Below are positions 4,201 to 12,902 of a stretch of 12,935 nucleotides of DNA, in pieces (the stretch's first letter is position 1; the number at the start of each line of letters is the position of its first letter). The stretch is taken from the NCBI GenBank assembly GCA_002415895.1, contig DIAV01000232.1:1-12935 (forward strand). The letters run 5' to 3'. The stretch is from Anaerolineales bacterium UBA5069. GTDB taxonomy: Bacteria > Chloroflexota > Anaerolineae > Caldilineales > Caldilineaceae. The notes below the pieces were generated by a model that saw nothing but the letters and a program-made list of their open reading frames with translations, had not been told where the DNA came from and searched no databases. The position numbers and the translations under genes are program-made.

Positions 4201-4696
4201 TCTCAAAGCTGGTGTCGTTGCCTGCAAAAGTAACAACAAATAGCTGCCCCACGCGGTCGGCAACAGACATGCGCGCCAGCAGCGTCTCCACTTGCTGGTC
4301 AAGCGCATAGGCGGCGCGCTGCTCGGCTGTGGCTGAAATAGGCAGCCCTGCGGCGAGCGCAGGCGGCAGCGTTGCCGTAGGGACAAGCGTGGGCGTAACC
4401 AGCGGGGTGATTGTGGCGGTTATGCCTTCAATGCTCGGCGTAAGCGCGGGCGTGGCTGTGAGGCTTGCCGTGACGGTCAGCGTTGCGCTGCCGGTGGGCG
4501 ACAGCGTTGCCGTTAATGTCGCCGTGTCGCTCAGCAGCGCGCTGTTCGTGAGAAAGGTGGGAAGCGCGGGCGGCTCGCTTGTGGGATCAGGGGGGGTGGC
4601 AGCAGGCGTGCCCGGTTGCGCCTGCGCCGGCAGGGGCGCAAGCGTCATGATCAGGAGCAGGAGAAGAAACGTGTAGCGGAGGCGGCGGGATGTCAT
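1262..4696 (-). CDS. Secreted, membrane-anchored GH3-fold protein with degenerate active site
   Basis: The product is 1144 residues. A signal peptide (1-26, hydrophobic core 9-20, PAQAQ cleavage zone) is followed by a Thr/Pro-rich stretch (about 50-118), a NagZ-type GH3 N-terminal domain (about 130-555), a linker, a GH3 C-terminal-like domain (about 625-885, broken by a PTPTPTP linker at 733-739), an Ig-like region (about 905-995) and three membrane helices (about 1055-1078, 1086-1105, 1113-1136). NagZ enzymes carry K-H-F-P-G-H-G and a downstream D-S/T-H catalytic loop; here it reads GHFPGQGD (364-371) with no following Asp-His. The nucleophile motif S-D-D-L appears as T-G-P-L (463-466), with Gly464 where the Asp should be. 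Hydrolase activity is therefore unlikely; glycan binding or a scaffold role is inferred. An in-frame ATG exists at 4957, but the signal peptide and the promoter at 4724-4752 support the start at 4696, with GGAA five bases upstream. Confidence 0.85.
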   Translation of the reverse strand: MTSRRLRYTFLLLLLIMTLAPLPAQAQPGTPAATPPDPTSEPPALPTFLTNSALLSDTATLTATLSPTGSATLTVTASLTATPALTPSIEGITATITPLVTPTLVPTATLPPALAAGLPISATAEQRAAYALDQQVETLLARMSVADRVGQLFVVTFAGNDTSFESAIAELIYAYRVGGVVLSPENGNFTNEPGADTPRQVAILANRLQAIAYGILLPTDVALQPVPLQPWPPSNFVSLERELGVTPPDLPLLVGAYQMGNALPGTSLRRGFTPLPSQLAIGSSWNLDSAQNVGAIVGRELSAVGFNLLLGPSLDVVEQPRADAVGSLSIFSFGGNASWVGRMGRAYISGVHAGSGGSVATVAGHFPGQGDLDRLPEEEVATIQRNRDDLLRVAVPPFVSVTQPLGAITDTALSDVLMTSHMRFNALQAPAGRNVPLSLDPDLAQFVGSTLGDWRARGGLLMTGPLGVPAIRRYYDPALQEFPARRVALDAFTAGHDLLYLSSFALDESWESQLNNIRATIAFFQERYRSDADFAASVDASVRRILRLKLRLYGSASSDPSADSAPGALPIPLSRVLVQEGDLAVLPDTSAPTTTGSNDSAAAPDTGSAEGNAVTDQAPAQVARDAITILSPDPANAVLPPAPQAGERILIVTDSRLQRECSTCTAEAAVDPDALARIILSLYGPDATGQIAPEQISSITFSDLNQILPAATDQTAEGTPSALATTTPALVLPTPTPTPVGVSADLNEGSGQATGDARADIVQELAEADWVIFAMLDMSSSYPESNVVRRYLRQPQDARANQRIVVMALNAPYFLDATEISKLSLYYGVYSKIEPFLESAVRALFRTTAPAGAPALNAPGTRFAALTDRLAPNPANIIPLQFSVGGAKLASNSLPPAAGAPVQDDGLGLSVMNVGDTIHLEAGPVLDLNGHPVPDGVLVSFDAAFEGAELALTIEPAPTRNGIAVRDLTVDRGGVLRVTARAAAANSGEAVVVNVLEPLPAVTTIPLTVVVTVTPSLSAIVMPTTTTAPPEPSSGVGVGALPAEGEGRTSRVNAMTLLLSLLTMLITLSLLLLAQIRVLPRETLFKSLIWAVLVGLLAYLLYAAGWLPGSDLLAQTLNVFAAPLVVFLAMLLPLFWLQLRVQAR

Positions 4697-4701
4697 TGGG
4701 G

Positions 4702-4705
4702 TTCC
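4702..4705 (-). promoter_or_regulatory. Weak ribosome binding site of the GH3-like gene
   Basis: On the minus strand GGAA lies five bases before the ATG at 4696. It is modest, but the methionine opens an immediate signal peptide (RR near the N terminus, then a Leu-rich core), which decides this start over the upstream in-frame ATG at 4957. Confidence 0.5.
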
Positions 4706-4723
4706 ATACGATGCATTGTCTCC

Positions 4724-4752
4724 AGTATAGCCCTGGGATGGAGGAGCGTCAA
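4724..4752 (-). promoter_or_regulatory. Sigma-70-type promoter of the GH3-like gene
   Basis: On the minus strand TTGACG (4752-4747) is followed after exactly 17 nt by TATACT (4729-4724). Both hexamers differ from consensus at one position. Transcription would start near 4717, giving a leader of about 20 nt before the ATG at 4696. This is the best promoter-like sequence in the window and excludes the longer reading frame that begins at 4957. Confidence 0.75.
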
Positions 4753-4875
4753 ACGGTGCAGGCGGAGAGGGGAAGGCTACTTGAAAGATGTGGGAGCAGC
4801 GCGCAAACGGGCAAAAAGCAACCTCACCGCGATTTCTGCGAGGCCATGCAACCACAAGCTTCCGCTCGAATAAGT

Positions 4876-4889
4876 AGAACATATGTGCT
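4876..4889. promoter_or_regulatory. Imperfect palindrome AGAACATATGTGCT, candidate LexA-like operator
   Basis: This 14-bp inverted repeat has a single mismatched base pair. Its core GAACATATGTGC differs at one base from GAACATATGTTC, the core of the LexA (DinR) box known from Bacillus and other Gram-positive bacteria. It lies about 67 nt upstream of the CHAT gene start. No clear -35/-10 pair was found for that gene, so its position relative to the promoter is unknown. A single site of this kind could occur by chance. Confidence 0.4.
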
Positions 4890-4940
4890 AATTTGGAGCG
4901 ACAATAGTGCCTGTATGCATTGTCTGAACACATTGTCTGC

Positions 4941-4946
4941 AAGGAG
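4941..4946 (+). promoter_or_regulatory. Ribosome binding site AAGGAG of the CHAT gene
   Basis: AAGGAG lies nine bases before the ATG at 4956. It decides the start in favour of 4956 over the in-frame ATG at 4920, which has no comparable site. Confidence 0.8.
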
Positions 4947-4955
4947 CAAGCGGCC

Positions 4956-6158
4956 ATGCACGAGGCCTGGGACTATACCGAGGATGAACCGATCCTCTGG
5001 TGGAACTACTTCCTCTACTACTGCACCCTGGGTGCGGGGCGCTCGGTGGCGCGGGCGCGCGCCGTGGAGGCCGCGCAGCAGGGTATGGAGCAGGGGCTGG
5101 GCGGCGCACTCACGCCGCCGCTCTACTCCCTCTCCAAGTGGCAGCGCATGGCGCGCCAGTACAAGTGGCAGGCGCGCGCCCGCGCCTGGGACGCGTGGCT
5201 GGCGCAGCGCGCCCACACGCCCGCCGAGCACCTGCTCCTTGCGGAACAGCAGCGCAGCGATCAGGTTGTGCGCCAGACCCTGAGCCGCGCCCTCCACATC
5301 TTTGACGCAGCAGACCTCAATACGCTGGATATTGAGCAGGCGCGCAAGCTGCTGCCGCTTGCCCAGGGCATGGTGCGCACGGCGCTGCAGGCGCAGCGCG
5401 ACAAGCAGCGGGCCGAGCGCCAGTTTGGGCTTTCGCCATTGCCTGCCCCGCGCGCAGAAGCAGAGCGCAGCGATTGGCAACATGCCATGGCCGACACCGT
5501 GCGCCGCGTCCAGCAGCTGATTGAGGCCGGTGTGATGCCCACGGGCAGGCCAGGCGAGCCAACCGCATCGGCGCTGATTCACGCGCTGGATGGCGCACAG
5601 CCGCATGCGCCGCCCGGCAAGCCATCACCCATGGCCGACGCGCTGATTCCTGAACGCACAGAACCCCACCTGCTGGTTGTAACCGGCAGGGATGACCTGC
5701 TGGAGATGGATCTGGCCATGGTGCGTGCGGTGGCAATTGCCACAGGCTTGCACTATCAGAGTATTACGCAGGCTACAAAGGATGACCTGGAAACGAGCCT
5801 GCGCCGCGCCCGCAGCCTGGGCCGCCCTGTGACATGGGTGCATATGGCCTGCCATGTAAGCCACACCGGTGTGCAATTTGTCGATGGTGTGGCCGATGGC
5901 GCATGGCTCAGCCGCGTGCTCATGGGGGTGGAGGTGCTGCTGATTGCCGGCTGCAATGGCGACAGGGTGGGCGATTGGCTGGCGGTTGTGCCCCACGTGA
6001 TTACACTCTCCGACGCCATTTCACACGATGACGCCGCCACGTTGACACGCCACTTCTGGCAATTTCTGGCAGGCGGCGAGCCCCCCACGGCGGCCCTCGC
6101 GCAGGCCATGGCGCGCTGTCCGCAGGTGCTCTGGGAGTCGGTGGTGGCGCACTGGTGA
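4956..6158 (+). CDS. Terminase-small-subunit-like domain fused to CHAT (caspase-like) peptidase
   Basis: The product is 400 residues with no signal peptide, so cytoplasmic. Residues about 10-85 match the pattern of phage terminase small subunits of the helix-turn-helix type: F/Y-rich helix, L-G-x-x-RS (25-30), then L-S-K-W62, W71, R74, R76 and W78-D79. Residues about 90-195 look mostly helical. Residues about 237-400 form a CHAT-like domain: strand HLLVV (238-242), VHMACH (295-300) giving the probable catalytic His300 (codon 5853-5855), and LLIAGCNG (328-335) giving the probable nucleophile Cys333 (codon 5952-5954). CHAT peptidases cleave partner proteins in bacterial conflict and cell-death systems; the partner here is unknown. 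The N-terminal domain suggests DNA binding or oligomerisation. No terminase large subunit or other phage gene is nearby, so a prophage remnant is unlikely. The gene stands alone between divergent and convergent neighbours, with its own regulatory region and a terminator. Confidence 0.8.
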   Translation: MHEAWDYTEDEPILWWNYFLYYCTLGAGRSVARARAVEAAQQGMEQGLGGALTPPLYSLSKWQRMARQYKWQARARAWDAWLAQRAHTPAEHLLLAEQQRSDQVVRQTLSRALHIFDAADLNTLDIEQARKLLPLAQGMVRTALQAQRDKQRAERQFGLSPLPAPRAEAERSDWQHAMADTVRRVQQLIEAGVMPTGRPGEPTASALIHALDGAQPHAPPGKPSPMADALIPERTEPHLLVVTGRDDLLEMDLAMVRAVAIATGLHYQSITQATKDDLETSLRRARSLGRPVTWVHMACHVSHTGVQFVDGVADGAWLSRVLMGVEVLLIAGCNGDRVGDWLAVVPHVITLSDAISHDDAATLTRHFWQFLAGGEPPTAALAQAMARCPQVLWESVVAHW

Positions 6159-6167
6159 GACAGTAAT

Positions 6168-6200
6168 AACAACATCTCAACGCAAAGTTGAGATGTTGTT
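6168..6200. terminator. Bidirectional terminator hairpin between convergent genes
   Basis: AACAACATCTCAAC (6168-6181) and GTTGAGATGTTGTT (6187-6200) form a perfect 14-bp stem with a five-base loop. It sits in the 59-nt gap between the stop of the CHAT gene (6158) and that of the M24 peptidase (6218), as expected for a shared terminator. The stem is AT-rich rather than GC-rich and there is no long T-run, though the 3' flank on each strand is rich in T. Confidence 0.8.
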
Positions 6201-8006: not shown

Positions 8007-11000
8007 TCAGTCGTTTGCAATCAGTTCCAGGTCGCTCGGCCAGCGCACGAGGACGCGGTAGCCACCGTTCCACGGTGCGGCGCGCGCCATTTGGCTCACC
8101 ACGCCCGTCACGCGCCAGCGTTGGCCGGGCAGCGCCGCGGGGCGGGGCCAGCCCAGGCTGCGCGCCACCATGACGCGCACAGCCGGCGCCTGGGGTTGCG
8201 CGGGGTCGTGCAGGTAGAGGCTATCCCCGTCGGCCCATGCGACAACGCCGGTGAAGCGCACAAGCCGTCCCTCAAAGGCCTCGCCAATGGCGGTAACGTG
8301 GGTGGCAAGCGGCTGCGGCAGCGCGCCCGCGCCTGTTGCGGCAATTGCGGCAGGCGTGTCAATGCGCAGTTCGCGCTCGCCGCGAAAGGTTGTCAATTCT
8401 CCGTGCGCCACCACCACATCGCCCGGGGCGAGGGCTGGGAAGTCGCCAATGGGCAGAAAGACGCGCAGGCCGGCCCCACAGTCACCCGCGTCCTCGGGCG
8501 CGCCACTCGTTTCTGCAATGTAGAGCGTGCTGTGCAGCAGGCCCGGCGGCAGGATGACCACGCCGCGCACTGTTGCCTCAACTCGAATGCCCAGGGCGCG
8601 CGCCGTGGCGACATCTGCAACGCCCGGGAGTCCGGGGGCAGCGGCTGCAGGCACCGCATCGATAGCGCTGGCAGGCGACGCGCCCACCATCATCGCGTTG
8701 GCGCCGGCGGGCGCGTTTTCCACAGCACCCTGTAATGCGGCGACCTGGACAACGGGCGCGTCCGCTGCGTCCTGCGGCACGGGTTCGAGGCGCGTGCCGT
8801 CGCCCACACGCACAAAGCGGGTGTCCGGCTCTGCCTCCTCCCAAAAGACCTCATCGGCAAGGCCACCACCGGGCAGGAAGAGGTAGAGGTGATCGCGCGC
8901 ATCATTGAGTACAAGGTGCGTCTCGCTGCGCCACAGCAGCAATTCCGCCTGGGCGGGGAGCACATGCGCCGCAGTGAAGGTAAAGCGCGCTGAACCTTCG
9001 GCGGCGGTGTTGCTGTCAAACAACTGCCATCCCGCCAATGCGACCGGCTGTGCGCCGCGGTTGATGAGCCTGACGTACTCATCGCCGCTGTCGATGTTGC
9101 CGTCGCCATTCCAATCACGCGTGGGGCGGGGCAGCGCCTCAATCATCTGAATGGCCATACGCATACTGTCGGCCAAAGGCTGTGCCACGTGGATGGGGGC
9201 GCTGATGGCAAAGGCGCCGTCGGCGCGGGTGGCGGTGGCATGGAACCAGGCGTCGGGCGGCGCAAGCAGGGTTTGGGACCACGCCCCGCCGCTTTGTGTA
9301 TCAGCTTCGGCCACAGGCACGCCATTTTGCCAGAGGGTGACATGCAGTGCGCCGCCGCGGGAATCCCCGGCGCGCACGGTGAAGGGCAGCGCGTTGGCGG
9401 GCGCTACTATCCCGCCCATCCACACACGGTCGTTGCCGGCGGTGAGCGCGAGCCAGAGGCCTGCATCGCTGCTCAGCCAGCCGCGGCGTGCGGCCAATGC
9501 GGCGGTCAAGGCGTCCGGCGCGGCGGAGGGTGCAGCCAGCCCGGTGTAACGCGGCGCGGGCAGCGCGACGGCAAAGGGTGCAGTCAAGCCGCTCCCGGCA
9601 GGCAGCAGCGGGCCGCCGGCAGCGCGCCAACTCTCCAACAGGGCAGCAGCGGCAGCAGAGGATGCAAGCGCATCAGCCGGGCGCGCGGCAAGGCTGGGGA
9701 TCTCCGCGAGCGTCGGTGCGTCGCCCTTGCGCCAGAGCAGCGGCGCGCCCTGATCGCGCGCCCAGGGCAGGAGCGCATAGCGGTCATCCAGCCCGGCGGG
9801 CCATGCGTTGGCATCGGGGCGCGTGCCGGCAAAGATGACAGCGCTATCGCCATCACCCTGCCAGCCCCAGGCGGGCAGCAGAGTGACCGGCGCATTGGCA
9901 ATGGGCGCGTGGGGTTTGGGATCGGCGAGCGCTATGAAGTCGAGACCCAGCGCCGCCGCTGCGGCCAGCAGCGCGCGCGGCGGCAGTGCAGCGCCCGACC
10001 AGGTGCTTGGCGCATCGAGCACACCCCAATAGGCGTGTAGATCGCCCGGCAGCGTCACAGGCGCATGGGGTGCGGGTGCGGGCCATTGCAACGCCTCAAG
10101 GGGTGCTGCGGGCAGCAGCGCCCAGCGGTCGGGCACATTGGGTGCAGACACAAAGTCGGGGCCGGGTACGCGCTGGAGCGCGTGTCCATCCGGCGCATCG
10201 AGCCGCCCTGCCAGCCCCAGCGCGGCGCAGTCACCGTCGCCATAGCAGAGCGCATCGGCCAGCACACCGGCGGGGTTCAGCAGTACCAGTTCATCGCCAC
10301 CATCGTCGAGTGCAAAGGCGCCGCCCGCGAGCCAGGCATTGCGCGCCAATATGGGCGTGCCGGCGCTGCCCGAATTGTCTGCCTCAAACTGGGCATCGGG
10401 GGCCACAAGCCAGCGGGCGGCAAAGCCCGCGCCGCTGCGCGCCACAATGTATGCGCCGCCCGGCGGAATCTGCGCGTCGGCAGGCAGGAAGGCGATGGCT
10501 TCGGCATCACCCGGGCGGGAAGCGTCGCCCAGTTGCCAGCCGGAGAGGACTACGCTGTCGCCGCTTGTATTCACCAACACAATGTACTCGCCTTCGCTGC
10601 CGCGGTAGAAGACTTCATCCATTTGCAGCGCTGATGGCGGCGCGCCCGAGGCCGGACGCGGCCACGCCGCCGGCAGGGGCGGCGCGGGGGTGAACGTGGG
10701 TGGGATGGAGGTGGGCGGTGCGGGGGGCGGCGTCCACGCTGCGCCCGGGCTGCCCCAATCCCCGGCTGAGCCGGGCCACGGCTGCCATGCGAGGGCCCAC
10801 CGCGGCGCAGCGTCGAAGGTCATGCGCTCCAGGCTGCGGCCGGGGAGAACCTGGGGCGAGTCCGGCGCATTGCCCCAGGCGGCGCTCTCCATCAGTTGCC
10901 CATCCGCGCTGTACAGCTCGAGCGCATCGGCATCGTCCAGCACAAGGCCCGGTAACAGGCCGTTGGCAACGACGCCGCCGTTCTGCAGGGGGCTACGCAC

Positions 11001-11354
11001 TTCGGTCAACACGGCGTAGCCACCCGGATCAATCCACAGGTCATTGACAAGGGTGGCGCTGTAGCCGCTGCGGATGCGTACCTGCCAGCCGGCAAGGTTC
11101 ACACCCTCTGCGCCGGTGTTGAAGAGTTCAATCCATTCACCGCCGCTGTCGGGCACGGCGCGAGGATTGGGCTGCACTTCGCTGAGGGCGATGCGCGCCG
11201 GTGGCGGCGCGTCCTGCGCGAGTGTGTGGCGTGAAAGGAGTGCCAGGAATGGCAGAAGAAGGAGCAGGAGAAACAGGCAGCGACTGGCCAGGACACCCCA
11301 GCCAGTGGGGTCGCACGTCGTATGGATGCGCAGGTGGGGCGCCTGCATGTCCAT
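8007..11354 (-). CDS. Giant secreted multidomain protein: three lamin-tail domains, degenerate PHP-like domain, two OB-folds
   Basis: The product is 1115 residues. A signal anchor or signal peptide (hydrophobic 21-41, cleavage zone near TLAQD) leads to a lamin-tail domain (about 53-165, GEWIELFN at 72-79). A Pro-rich linker, a second LTD (about 242-376) and a PHP/CehA-like region (about 437-650) follow, then a third LTD (about 739-850) whose start holds an EF-hand-like loop DWNGDGNIDSGD (747-758). Two OB-fold-like domains (about 912-1000 and 1018-1112) end the protein. LTD and OB modules are common in secreted nucleases and surface proteins; no nuclease motif is seen here. The PHP-like region keeps DLH (438-440) but has lost most ligands: the usual T-D-H is A-D-P (476-478). 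The ATG at 11354 has AGGAGG six bases upstream, better than the upstream ATG at 11399. Extracellular binding or adhesion is inferred. No sorting signal or C-terminal helix is visible, so it is probably released or held by other means. Confidence 0.85.
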   Translation of the reverse strand: MDMQAPHLRIHTTCDPTGWGVLASRCLFLLLLLLPFLALLSRHTLAQDAPPPARIALSEVQPNPRAVPDSGGEWIELFNTGAEGVNLAGWQVRIRSGYSATLVNDLWIDPGGYAVLTEVRSPLQNGGVVANGLLPGLVLDDADALELYSADGQLMESAAWGNAPDSPQVLPGRSLERMTFDAAPRWALAWQPWPGSAGDWGSPGAAWTPPPAPPTSIPPTFTPAPPLPAAWPRPASGAPPSALQMDEVFYRGSEGEYIVLVNTSGDSVVLSGWQLGDASRPGDAEAIAFLPADAQIPPGGAYIVARSGAGFAARWLVAPDAQFEADNSGSAGTPILARNAWLAGGAFALDDGGDELVLLNPAGVLADALCYGDGDCAALGLAGRLDAPDGHALQRVPGPDFVSAPNVPDRWALLPAAPLEALQWPAPAPHAPVTLPGDLHAYWGVLDAPSTWSGAALPPRALLAAAAALGLDFIALADPKPHAPIANAPVTLLPAWGWQGDGDSAVIFAGTRPDANAWPAGLDDRYALLPWARDQGAPLLWRKGDAPTLAEIPSLAARPADALASSAAAAALLESWRAAGGPLLPAGSGLTAPFAVALPAPRYTGLAAPSAAPDALTAALAARRGWLSSDAGLWLALTAGNDRVWMGGIVAPANALPFTVRAGDSRGGALHVTLWQNGVPVAEADTQSGGAWSQTLLAPPDAWFHATATRADGAFAISAPIHVAQPLADSMRMAIQMIEALPRPTRDWNGDGNIDSGDEYVRLINRGAQPVALAGWQLFDSNTAAEGSARFTFTAAHVLPAQAELLLWRSETHLVLNDARDHLYLFLPGGGLADEVFWEEAEPDTRFVRVGDGTRLEPVPQDAADAPVVQVAALQGAVENAPAGANAMMVGASPASAIDAVPAAAAPGLPGVADVATARALGIRVEATVRGVVILPPGLLHSTLYIAETSGAPEDAGDCGAGLRVFLPIGDFPALAPGDVVVAHGELTTFRGERELRIDTPAAIAATGAGALPQPLATHVTAIGEAFEGRLVRFTGVVAWADGDSLYLHDPAQPQAPAVRVMVARSLGWPRPAALPGQRWRVTGVVSQMARAAPWNGGYRVLVRWPSDLELIAND

Positions 11355-11360
11355 GGCGGC

Positions 11361-11366
11361 CCTCCT
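11361..11366 (-). promoter_or_regulatory. Ribosome binding site AGGAGG of the giant LTD gene
   Basis: A full AGGAGG lies six bases before the ATG at 11354 on the minus strand. It fixes this start over the ATG at 11399, which lies inside the arm of the intergenic hairpin. Confidence 0.85.
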
Positions 11367-11389
11367 GGTGGGGCCGGGGAACAAAGCAT

Positions 11390-11457
11390 AATTGATCATT
11401 GAAGATTGATGATTGGGGCATGCAGGAGCCCAACCATCAAGTCTGCAATGATCAATT
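11390..11457. repeat. Long imperfect inverted repeat (hairpin) between the two LTD genes
   Basis: The arms 11390-11415 and 11431-11457 are complementary over 26-27 bases with two mismatches and one single-base bulge, separated by a 15-base GC-rich loop. The outermost 12 bases of the arms (AATTGATCATTG and its complement) pair perfectly. The arms carry degenerate copies of the ATGATCA heptamer also found at 12-35. On the minus strand the hairpin lies after the stop of the small LTD gene (11499) and before the start of the giant LTD gene, so it could act as a terminator, an mRNA-stabilising element, or a small mobile repeat. Confidence 0.75.
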
Positions 11458-11498: not shown

Positions 11499-12902
11499 CT
11501 ACGGCGCGGGCGCAACCGGCACACGCACCGTAGGCATGTAGTTCTTGTTCTCGCACAACTTGTTGGCCTTGCCCGCCGTGGGGCAAACGAGCAACTGGAA
11601 GCTGGCCTTGTTGTTGGCGCTGCCCGCACCATCGGGGAAGCGCCCCATGGCCACATTGTCGGTCTGCTTGCCAAAATCAAGGCCGTCAATCTGCACGGTG
11701 CCTTGTGCGCCAAAGAGCGCGAGGAAATCGCCATCCTTGTTCAGGCTGAAGTTGGTGTGGGTTGGCCCCTGCTCAGCATCGTCGTCGAGCCAGAAAATGA
11801 TAAACCCCTTGGCAGGCACGCTCAGGCCGTTGGGAATGGCGTACATGGTTGTCTCGCGCAGGCTGTCGGTGAGGAAGAGGCCGTCCAGCGCAATGGGCGA
11901 CGCCGCAGGGTTGTAGATCTCCATCCAGTCGGGGAATTCGCCGGGGTCGTCCACGTCCTCCACCAGACCATTGTTTTCCGCCATAAACTCATTGATACGC
12001 AGTACAGGCGCGACATAGCCGACAACATAACCGTTCCACTGGGCGCGCGCTTCATTGCTTTCGTTATCTACGGCGCGCACCTGGTAGGCGACAAAGGTGC
12101 CGTTGGGCTGGGGCGGAATTGTGGCCTGCCACTTGTTGGCGGGCTGGCCGGCCATGGGCAATGAAATGGCCGTTGTGCCTACGGTGTACACCAGCGTCGC
12201 GCTCACAATGCTTTGGTCATCGGTGATGACGGCAGTGACGATGACGCTGTCGGCGGCCTGGGGCTGCACAATGTTGCGCGTTACGCTGACAATTACGGGC
12301 GCATTCTTGCTATTGCTTTCGCCGGGCGTGGCCACGCTAAAGGCGCGCCACGTGGGGCCGCCGTCGGGGCTGCGCCCTTCGGAGACATCCTGCACCTGCA
12401 CACCAAAGTCATGTTGATCCACCTCAGCGCCGCTGGAGGTCTGATAAATGCCGATGGACTCACCGTCGGCGCTCAGGCCAAAGGTAAAGTGGCGCGCGCT
12501 GAGGGGCCGCTGGTTGGCATCCTCGCCCTGAAAGAAGAGCAGGAATCCCCCTGCCGGCACCATGACGGTTTGCGTAATGGGGTTCTTGTCGGGCCTGATG
12601 GGGTCGTCGCTGAGCGAAAGGCCCTTCATGTCCACGGCGACTGCGCCCGGGTTGTAGATCTCAATCCAGTCGGGGGTTTTTTCGGGCTGTGCCGGGTCAA
12701 TCACAAGGCTGCCGTTTGCGGCCATGAACTCATTAATGCGCAGCGCTGCCTGCGCCGGCGGCACAGCATCGGGTGCTGCGTCCTGGGCATGGGCCACGGC
12801 GGGCAGCATGGTCACAACGAAGGCTACCACGGCCAGCCCAAGCAGACGCGCACAGGTGGGCGACGCGCTGCGAAGACGTTGGGTGAGCTGCATGAATGTC
12901 AT
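11499..12902 (-). CDS. Secreted protein with two lamin-tail domains
   Basis: The product is 467 residues. A signal peptide (1-39, hydrophobic 19-34, AVAHA cleavage zone before QDAAP) is followed by LTD 1 (about 54-198), an Ig/fibronectin-like spacer (about 202-297) and LTD 2 (about 300-437). The two LTDs are clear duplicates: LRINEFMA opens both (54-61 and 301-308), followed by PDWIEIYNP and PDWMEIYNP, a glycine-rich strand ending in LLFF or IIFW, and a Gly-Arg-x-PDG motif (176-181 and 420-425). The tail has two cysteines (440, 450) and ends YMPTVRVPVAPAP, with no membrane helix. LTDs in bacteria are all-beta modules on secreted proteins, thought to bind or link surface components; the ligand is not known. 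The ATG at 12902 has no clear ribosome binding site, and the ATG at 12893 is an alternative. The giant LTD gene lies 144 nt downstream, suggesting related surface roles. Confidence 0.88.
   Translation of the reverse strand: MTFMQLTQRLRSASPTCARLLGLAVVAFVVTMLPAVAHAQDAAPDAVPPAQAALRINEFMAANGSLVIDPAQPEKTPDWIEIYNPGAVAVDMKGLSLSDDPIRPDKNPITQTVMVPAGGFLLFFQGEDANQRPLSARHFTFGLSADGESIGIYQTSSGAEVDQHDFGVQVQDVSEGRSPDGGPTWRAFSVATPGESNSKNAPVIVSVTRNIVQPQAADSVIVTAVITDDQSIVSATLVYTVGTTAISLPMAGQPANKWQATIPPQPNGTFVAYQVRAVDNESNEARAQWNGYVVGYVAPVLRINEFMAENNGLVEDVDDPGEFPDWMEIYNPAASPIALDGLFLTDSLRETTMYAIPNGLSVPAKGFIIFWLDDDAEQGPTHTNFSLNKDGDFLALFGAQGTVQIDGLDFGKQTDNVAMGRFPDGAGSANNKASFQLLVCPTAGKANKLCENKNYMPTVRVPVAPAP

What the first reader, a model, noticed from the sequence alone, without database searches (positions are those of the whole stretch)
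4956..6158. Phage-terminase-small-subunit-like domain fused to a CHAT caspase-like peptidase
The sequence shows W62, W71, R74 and W78-D79 in the arrangement of phage small terminases, together with a His300/Cys333 dyad in VHMACH and IAGCNG contexts typical of CHAT peptidases. CHAT domains are known effectors in bacterial conflict and death systems. A packaging-type DNA-recognition domain as the sensor would give a single-protein system that could respond to phage DNA or phage packaging proteins. No phage genes surround it, and it has its own control region and terminator. The sensor role is inference.
Basis: partly seen in the sequence, partly recalled or inferred. Interest (0 to 1): 0.78.

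Follow-up and report, generated by a model that had tools for sequence, protein, structure and literature searches.

The report
Phage packaging protein fused to death-protease
A bacterial gene joins the DNA-recognising small subunit of a phage packaging motor to a caspase-like protease, and related phages and prophage-like elements carry similar joins to a cell-death adaptor domain, which suggests that virus DNA packaging may be wired directly to a self-destruct or weapon protease.

Summary

Beyond the finding: (1) the same TerS lineage is fused in at least seven other places to EAD1, an adaptor domain of bacterial conflict systems: three in bacterial assemblies, four on viral contigs, each with TerL nearby. 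(2) Relatives of the compact CHAT occur on three viral contigs as probably membrane-anchored proteins, once directly upstream of TerS-TerL. (3) The window's genome also holds a matching TerL and a head-gene cluster, each on another contig.

So this is a phage-derived packaging protein carrying a death-type effector. My best mechanism: engagement of the TerS module with DNA or TerL activates the protease and kills the cell. Who benefits (host, resident element or phage) is open. Everything past anatomy and kinship is inference.

The parts
4956..6158 (+). TerS-CHAT fusion gene, 400 aa
4956..5429 (+). small-terminase (TerS) module, residues 1-158: N-terminal helices 13-24, 31-45, 59-68, 71-85 (DNA-binding region by analogy), then a long helical hairpin 89-118/126-156
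   Evidence: PHROG hit; AF2 model from 71 rows, mean pLDDT 87; homology to TerS genes beside TerL
5430..5657 (+). variable linker, residues 159-234 (mean pairwise identity 0.46 among seven close rows, against 0.66-0.71 for TerS and 0.82 for CHAT)
   Evidence: low pLDDT
5658..6155 (+). compact CHAT caspase-like peptidase domain, residues 235-400
5853..5855 (+). His300 codon, putative catalytic His
5952..5954 (+). Cys333 codon, putative nucleophile
4697..4955 (.). divergent intergenic region (control region), if the GH3 gene starts at the ATG at 4696
   Evidence: sequence; the only sigma-70-like site found is on the - strand
6168..6200 (.). perfect 14-bp inverted repeat, 5-base loop, between convergent genes; terminator-like stem without a T-run
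   Evidence: not called by the terminator scan

Best explanation
The gene encodes a phage-derived small terminase subunit with a caspase-like CHAT peptidase in place of its usual C-terminal tail. SHOWN by sequence and model: TerS-type N-terminal module with a helical hairpin of the oligomerisation-core kind, variable linker, CHAT fold with an invariant His-Cys pair. INFERRED: the TerS module recognises phage-type DNA and/or a phage or resident TerL and assembles; assembly or TerL engagement brings the CHAT domains into an active state; the protease then cleaves cellular or phage proteins, so that the cell dies or virus production stops when packaging machinery appears. TerS thus plays the part that core components play in conflict systems: the effector is fused directly here (CHAT), and is probably recruited through an adaptor in the sister TerS-EAD1 proteins.
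Against: No activity, oligomer, DNA or TerL binding was tested. The window protein alone is below Pfam's CHAT cut-off, P0007 has no CHAT hit at E<=1, and the full-length model is only fair (mean pLDDT 62, pTM 0.40; the stretch 331-340 with Cys333 is at 51). No solved TerS came up in the fold searches of the N-terminal model. In 4 of 9 members tested there was no PADLOC hit and no NCBIfam hit above cut-off. The family is small (9 full-length proteins including the window's; those searches scored only the about 8,000 candidates sharing most words), and I could see the genomic context of the window's copy only. The TerS-EAD1 examples lie with phage packaging genes, so the function may serve a phage rather than kill the cell in defence.
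Confidence: 0.4

Rival explanations
1. It is the small terminase of a dispersed gene-transfer-agent-like or otherwise domesticated prophage in this genome, and the CHAT domain couples packaging to cell death or lysis so that particles are released.
For: The own genome holds a TerL (C121, E 5.7e-173; phrog_2 TerL 5e-32) between an ABC-transporter ATPase and a dynamin-type GTPase gene, and on C275 a head cluster: portal match, open head protease/major head protein and two further genes conserved in the block, with prfB about 3.6 kb away. One TerS-like match only, the window's, was found in that genome (84 of 92 candidates scored). The G401 element is about 9 kb between ordinary bacterial genes, with no integrase that I recognised by eye. 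In Caulobacter a CARD-NLR-like system with peptidase domains is needed for lysis by gene transfer agents (PMC13236601, abstract and passages).
Against: TerL of this kind is patchy: 7 of 46 genomes of the family at E<=1e-30 (an eighth, G400, has a contig-end fragment at 2.9e-17), unlike an old vertically kept agent. The own portal match contains one in-frame stop. The genome is a draft in 412 contigs, and the head cluster reaches a contig end about 0.4 kb beyond the portal match, so dispersal is likely but not proven.
Confidence: 0.2
2. Host-domesticated antiviral sensor: the TerS module is an integrated decoy that binds the TerL or pac-type DNA of an incoming phage and sets off the CHAT protease (abortive infection).
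For: Orphan position among ordinary bacterial genes; two relatives lie on contigs of 2.4 Mb, hence chromosomal (P0003, P0005); effector dyad conserved; 0 TerS-CHAT among 72 viral TerS loci. TerL sensing by Avs-type defence is known to me from recall.
Against: No defence gene recognised among the six neighbours scanned and no PADLOC hit for the protein. Viral contigs themselves carry TerS-EAD1 and relatives of the compact CHAT, which suggests that such joins arose on phages or phage-derived elements.
Confidence: 0.2
3. A phage or prophage weapon against competitors or host defence: TerS-linked CHAT cleaves competitor or host proteins, and TerS-EAD1 acts as a decoy that titrates host EAD1 adaptors, much as animal viruses make death-domain decoys (recalled comparison).
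For: CHAT relatives as probably membrane-anchored coiled-coil proteins (membrane helix and coiled coil judged by eye) in 3 of 3 viral loci found with the CHAT alignment, one directly upstream of TerS and TerL with portal and head genes behind. EADs are described as having no enzymatic features. Further EAD1 ORFs lie in two of the TerS-EAD1 elements (33.7 bits, above, and 21.1 bits, below the cut-off).
Against: The window's copy is not in a phage block. A decoy needs no catalytic dyad, yet the dyad is invariant in the CHAT branch. By Pfam the phage CHAT proteins are weak: L093 23.7 bits (cut-off 24), L107 and L175 no CHAT hit at E<=1; their kinship rests on my profile of the TerS-CHAT family (7e-51, 6e-40, 3.8e-53).
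Confidence: 0.12
4. The CHAT domain does a job inside virion assembly, such as processing head or terminase proteins, and the window's gene is a relic of that.
For: Fusion to TerS and, in one viral contig, adjacency to TerS and TerL.
Against: The related elements already have a protein matching head maturation proteases; 0 of 74 TerS ORFs carry CHAT; the reading frame and dyad are intact in an orphan gene.
Confidence: 0.08

Closest known systems
SAVED-CHAT effector (PDB 8tl0)
   Different: 17% identity; a TerS module stands where SAVED would be; that SAVED-CHAT answers to a cyclic nucleotide is recalled ('activated SAVED-CHAT filament' is the entry's title)
TPR-CHAT of Craspase (type III-E CRISPR)
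   Same: CHAT protease under the control of a nucleic-acid-recognising machine (PMC9729208: search listing and start of abstract only)
   Different: No gRAMP or TPR here; a DNA-packaging module instead of an RNA guide
EAD-based ternary conflict systems (Kaur et al. 2020, PMC7159879, passages)
   Same: Sister TerS proteins carry EAD1 over Pfam's cut-off; direct-fusion and EAD versions of one core component, as described there
   Different: 'terminase' occurs 0 times in that paper and in PMC8195603; the window's protein itself has no EAD; no MoxR, STAND or GTPase partner among the window's scanned genes
Phage TerS proteins (review PMC9611059, passages)
   Same: N-terminal DNA-binding helices plus central helical hairpin; variable C-terminal region
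   Different: 400 aa with a peptidase, against about 15-21 kDa; not beside TerL
Orphan TerS of phage-inducible islands (SaPI type; recalled)
   Same: A solitary TerS that could engage another phage's TerL
   Different: No other island genes recognised in the window; protease fused
LypABC of the Caulobacter gene transfer agent (PMC13236601, abstract and passages)
   Same: Death/lysis peptidases tied to a domesticated phage
   Different: Separate CARD-NLR-like proteins, not fused to terminase; 'CHAT' occurs 0 times there

Membership tests
Small terminase (TerS) | Sequence homology to phage TerS | tested here: met
   phrog_6299 in 8 of 8 rows; profile hits to genes beside TerL; the ValentiniPuff gp3 ORF 5e-17 by my profile, a gene in TerS position
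Small terminase (TerS) | N-terminal DNA-binding helices and central helical hairpin | tested here: met
   AF2 model, mean pLDDT 87, helices 13-85 then hairpin 89-118/126-156; domain plan from PMC9611059. The helix-turn-helix itself was not verified
Small terminase (TerS) | Match to a solved TerS structure | tested here: inconclusive
Small terminase (TerS) | Gene next to TerL | tested here: not met
   Not in the window; TerL of the matching kind on another contig. Met for related TerS genes. So I call it TerS-derived, not a proven working TerS
Small terminase (TerS) | Ring oligomer; binding of DNA and TerL | not testable with these tools
   needs protein
CHAT peptidase | Profile match | tested here: met
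   P0002 32.4 bits, above the cut-off of 24; 7 of 8 rows at E<=1; hhalign E 5.8e-12. The window protein alone scores 16.4, below the cut-off
CHAT peptidase | Caspase-like fold | tested here: met
CHAT peptidase | His-Cys dyad | tested here: met
   12 of 12; aligned with CHAT His and Cys
CHAT peptidase | Proteolysis | not testable with these tools
   needs protein
Known anti-phage system | Match to a PADLOC model | tested here: not met
   0 of 4 family members tested
EAD ternary conflict system | EAD in the protein itself | tested here: not met
   No EAD among the 7 families hit by the 8 rows; EAD1 only in sister TerS proteins
Gene transfer agent | Dispersed head and packaging genes kept intact in the chromosome | tested here: inconclusive
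   Three loci in the own genome, but draft assembly, one stop in the portal match, patchy TerL (7 of 46)

The most novel reading that the evidence does not exclude
The viral DNA-packaging complex is itself the input of a death-effector network. A lineage of phages and prophage-derived elements in Chloroflexota (Caldilineaceae by inference) has turned its small terminase into a hub that carries either a caspase-like protease or a conflict-system adaptor (EAD1), so that starting to package DNA switches on, recruits or sabotages a self-destruct machinery. That would be a class of conflict or release system in which TerS is the trigger.
Probability: 0.3. Interest if true: 0.92.

Novelty: new variant of a known kind. 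Interest (0 to 1): 0.74.

Why it matters
Bacterial CHAT proteases resemble caspases and EADs are likened to apoptotic adaptors, and what triggers most such systems is, to my knowledge, unknown. Here the trigger module is named by its homology: a piece of the packaging motor, whose ligands (DNA, TerL) can be tested directly. Recurrent pairing of one TerS lineage with two different conflict-system modules, on viral contigs as well as in bacterial genomes, is in my judgement (no statistical test was made) unlikely to be chance, and suggests a packaging-coupled death, release or sabotage route. I found no paper that describes it: 'CHAT domain' with 'terminase small subunit' gave 0 papers; terminase/caspase/CHAT/phage-encoded/effector-associated, 4 of 5 terms, gave 2 listings, by title unrelated; 'CHAT domain' with prophage and caspase gave 1, by title unrelated.

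Tried and rejected
Rejected: CHAT as a chance weak hit (own E 0.0062), because family profile, hhalign and fold agree. Rejected: the TerS label as a PHROG artefact, because relatives lie beside TerL. Rejected for lack of support: an ordinary prophage in the window.

Led nowhere: genome-contig scans with the protein and with A2 (13 and 60 stretches, no relative); viral-contig scans with the window protein, P0007 and A2; plasmids; PDB by sequence (one hit of E 0.43, a coiled-coil construct); PDB by fold for the N-terminal half; tblastn of the P0009 N-terminus against phages (5 records, none below E 1; ValentiniPuff appeared there at E 1); Rfam and tRNA scans (none); a paper search for SAVED-CHAT (26 papers, 6 listed, by title irrelevant); a search for Avs/TerL sensing (55 papers, 12 listed, none opened); a search on gene transfer agents in Chloroflexi (4 listed, none opened). 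I could not see the genomic context of the TerS-CHAT relatives P0001-P0009.

Limits of the counts: only up to 4 candidates per genome were scored, so TerS-like genes are undercounted there. One search found any match in 28 of 396 genomes and the full fusion in 1 (the own genome); others (46 genomes; 46, the same genomes; 400) found no second full fusion at their E limits (1e-20, 1e-15, 1e-15). Viral scans work by short patterns and miss members: the EAD1 scan did not return L192. P0008 (frameshift-like fragment) was dropped from A2; one wrong-frame ORF of L033 and three other rows (L032, L046, L048) were dropped between A3 and A4; A5 used 62 of the 120 listed TerS relatives (162 found); the tree used 32 rows of my choice from the ORFs found.

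Full report
OBSERVATION. The ORF at 4956-6158 (+) encodes 400 aa. The gene stands on the + strand between a GH3-type glycosidase gene and an M24 peptidase gene; the six neighbours scanned are ordinary bacterial genes. A 14-bp perfect inverted repeat follows it at 6168-6200, without a T-run; the terminator scan gave nothing.

FAMILY. A search of 5.8 billion proteins found 7 full-length relatives (P0001-P0007) and one fragment (P0008); the profile added P0009. Identities to the window protein are 61-70% for six and 36-40% for two. With P0009, His300 and Cys333 are kept in 9 of 9 TerS-CHAT proteins and in three phage CHAT proteins, 12 of 12. Among the seven close rows the CHAT part is kept best (mean pairwise identity 0.82), TerS 0.66-0.71, linker 0.46. 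That pattern suggests selection on both domains and on the protease most.

N-TERMINAL HALF. PHROGs names it a terminase small subunit in 8 of 8 rows. I tested the label by genome context. In 396 genomes of the class, 28 had a match to the family profile, mostly to its N-terminal part in ORFs of about 140-320 aa; in 46 genomes of the family, 19 had the TerS module. Four such ORFs were checked to stand directly before a TerL by Pfam (L033, L039, L048; L031). A fifth tested neighbour ORF (L042) had no Pfam hit, and the others scanned beside TerS-like ORFs were ordinary genes. A model of residues 1-176 from 71 sequences reaches mean pLDDT 87 and shows four helices followed by a long helical hairpin, the plan that a review of phage TerS gives: helix-turn-helix, then a helical hairpin as oligomerisation core, a stalk, and a variable C-terminal part (PMC9611059, passages). 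The best viral structural match is Microbacterium phage ValentiniPuff gp3 (E 1.6e-4), which lies directly before that phage's terminase and portal genes. No solved TerS appeared, so that part of the test is inconclusive.

THE WIDER PICTURE. (a) TerS-EAD1. A gene in another genome of the family (L049) joins the same TerS module to EAD1 (41.2 bits, cut-off 24.2). Two more in bacterial assemblies (L084 on a 4.5-kb contig, L082 on a 1.16-Mb contig) and three on viral contigs (L094, L096, L143) also pass the cut-off (36.0, 51.6, 28.9, 49.4, 44.4 bits); a seventh, L192, was found with my own profile. All seven have TerL next to them or one small gene away (in L049 only its start, at the contig end). 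Of the 80 best viral loci with the partner type of TerL, 3 had TerS-EAD1 and 2 a CHAT ORF; of 72 viral loci found by TerS, 4 had TerS-EAD1 and none TerS-CHAT. A viral scan with EAD1 alone returned three loci, all TerS-EAD1. The G401 element runs TerS-EAD1, a small protein, TerL, portal, head protease/major head protein, a second EAD1 ORF and two genes without a PHROG hit in about 9 kb between a PHAX-type and an APH-type gene.

(b) CHAT on phages. A viral scan with the compact CHAT found three contigs. By eye, all three proteins have an N-terminal membrane helix and a coiled coil before CHAT. Pfam sees them weakly: L093 23.7 bits (cut-off 24), L107 and L175 not at all; my profile of the TerS-CHAT family gives 7e-51, 6e-40 and 3.8e-53. 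In L093 the gene lies directly upstream of TerS and TerL, with portal and head genes behind. The fusion in the window could have arisen from such neighbours (inference).

(c) The window's own genome. It has a TerL of the same kind on C121 (E 5.7e-173; PHROG TerL 5e-32) between an ABC ATPase and a dynamin-type GTPase gene, and on C275 a portal match with one in-frame stop, an open head protease/major head protein and two further genes conserved in the block (1.5e-46 and 3.5e-10 by my profiles), about 3.6 kb from prfB. No second TerS-like gene was found (84 of 92 candidates scored). It also has three EAD1 matches, one of them, L078, in an ORF that looks like an EAD1-trypsin by eye.

(d) Tree. 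Of 32 TerS rows, the nine TerS-CHAT form one clade (support 90/96; one side of a branch in 86% of bootstraps), whereas EAD1 needs four changes. So CHAT was probably gained once, EAD1 perhaps more than once or lost often. The rows were my choice and several forks are open.

MECHANISM. Shown: architecture, conservation, phage kinship, presence of TerL and head genes in the same genome. Inferred: TerS senses DNA and/or TerL, assembles and activates CHAT. Support for reading TerS as the core of a conflict-type system is the interchange of a directly fused effector with an EAD adaptor, the pattern that Kaur et al. describe for their systems (PMC7159879, passages). Beneficiary open: host defence, a gene-transfer-agent-like release route (precedent: LypABC, PMC13236601), or phage warfare. 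Patchiness of TerL (7 of 46 genomes) speaks against an old, vertically kept agent.

NOVELTY. Both domains are known; the join, its EAD1 sisters and their packaging context I did not find in print (155 papers, 15 listed, one of them opened after it; 'terminase' 0 times in PMC7159879, PMC8195603 and PMC10907252). I file it as a new variant of a known kind (CHAT effector protein with a new input module), and keep open that it is the first seen of a packaging-coupled class. That the organism belongs to Caldilineaceae (Chloroflexota) is an inference from source names of TerS homologues of its family.

Wording and counts were mended against the calls (share of TerS-CHAT among the 12, contig sizes of the EAD1 cases, Pfam results for the phage CHAT proteins, model confidence around Cys333, capped lists).

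Noticed in passing
L031:9453-11382 (G236:C1); L034:9683-10225 (G379:C1): In a sister genus, a TerS-TerL pair (L031) or a TerS-like gene (L034) lies among ordinary host genes (Gfo/Idh/MocA, solute-binding protein or GSDH), with up to six TerS-like matches per genome: mobile or domesticated terminases? Only a few neighbours were scanned.
   Followed up: partly
L065, L066, L075, L076: Proteins of 431-526 aa (stop to stop) with two TerS-like modules in tandem.
   Followed up: no
L218:5379-7379 and L219:2787-4787: Single ORFs of 667 aa that join a TerS-like module to what looks by eye like a TerL in viral contigs.
   Followed up: no
L078, L081 (G000:C260), L080 (G000:C297): EAD1 proteins in the window's own genome: one with a trypsin-like domain by eye, one Q-rich, one with repeats like TPR by eye: candidate conflict system.
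   Followed up: partly
L082:3344-3679 and L143:9719-10273: Second, free-standing EAD1 ORFs inside TerS-EAD1 phage-like elements (33.7 and 21.1 bits; the second is below the cut-off).
   Followed up: partly
L175:9551-10489: Probably membrane-anchored coiled-coil CHAT relative on a 107-kb viral contig; no Pfam CHAT hit at E<=1 but 3.8e-53 in my CHAT profile.
   Followed up: partly
L173:12110-12250 and translations in L078: A short repeated sequence (gggcttccagccctc type) beside the solitary TerL and, by its translation, at another locus of the same genome.
   Followed up: no
window 4956-5435: The TerS part has a higher third-position G+C (0.88) than the CHAT part (0.74) and the neighbouring genes (0.73-0.77).
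   Followed up: no
window 8007-11399 and 11499-12902: Two adjacent large proteins with lamin-tail domains on the - strand.
   Followed up: no
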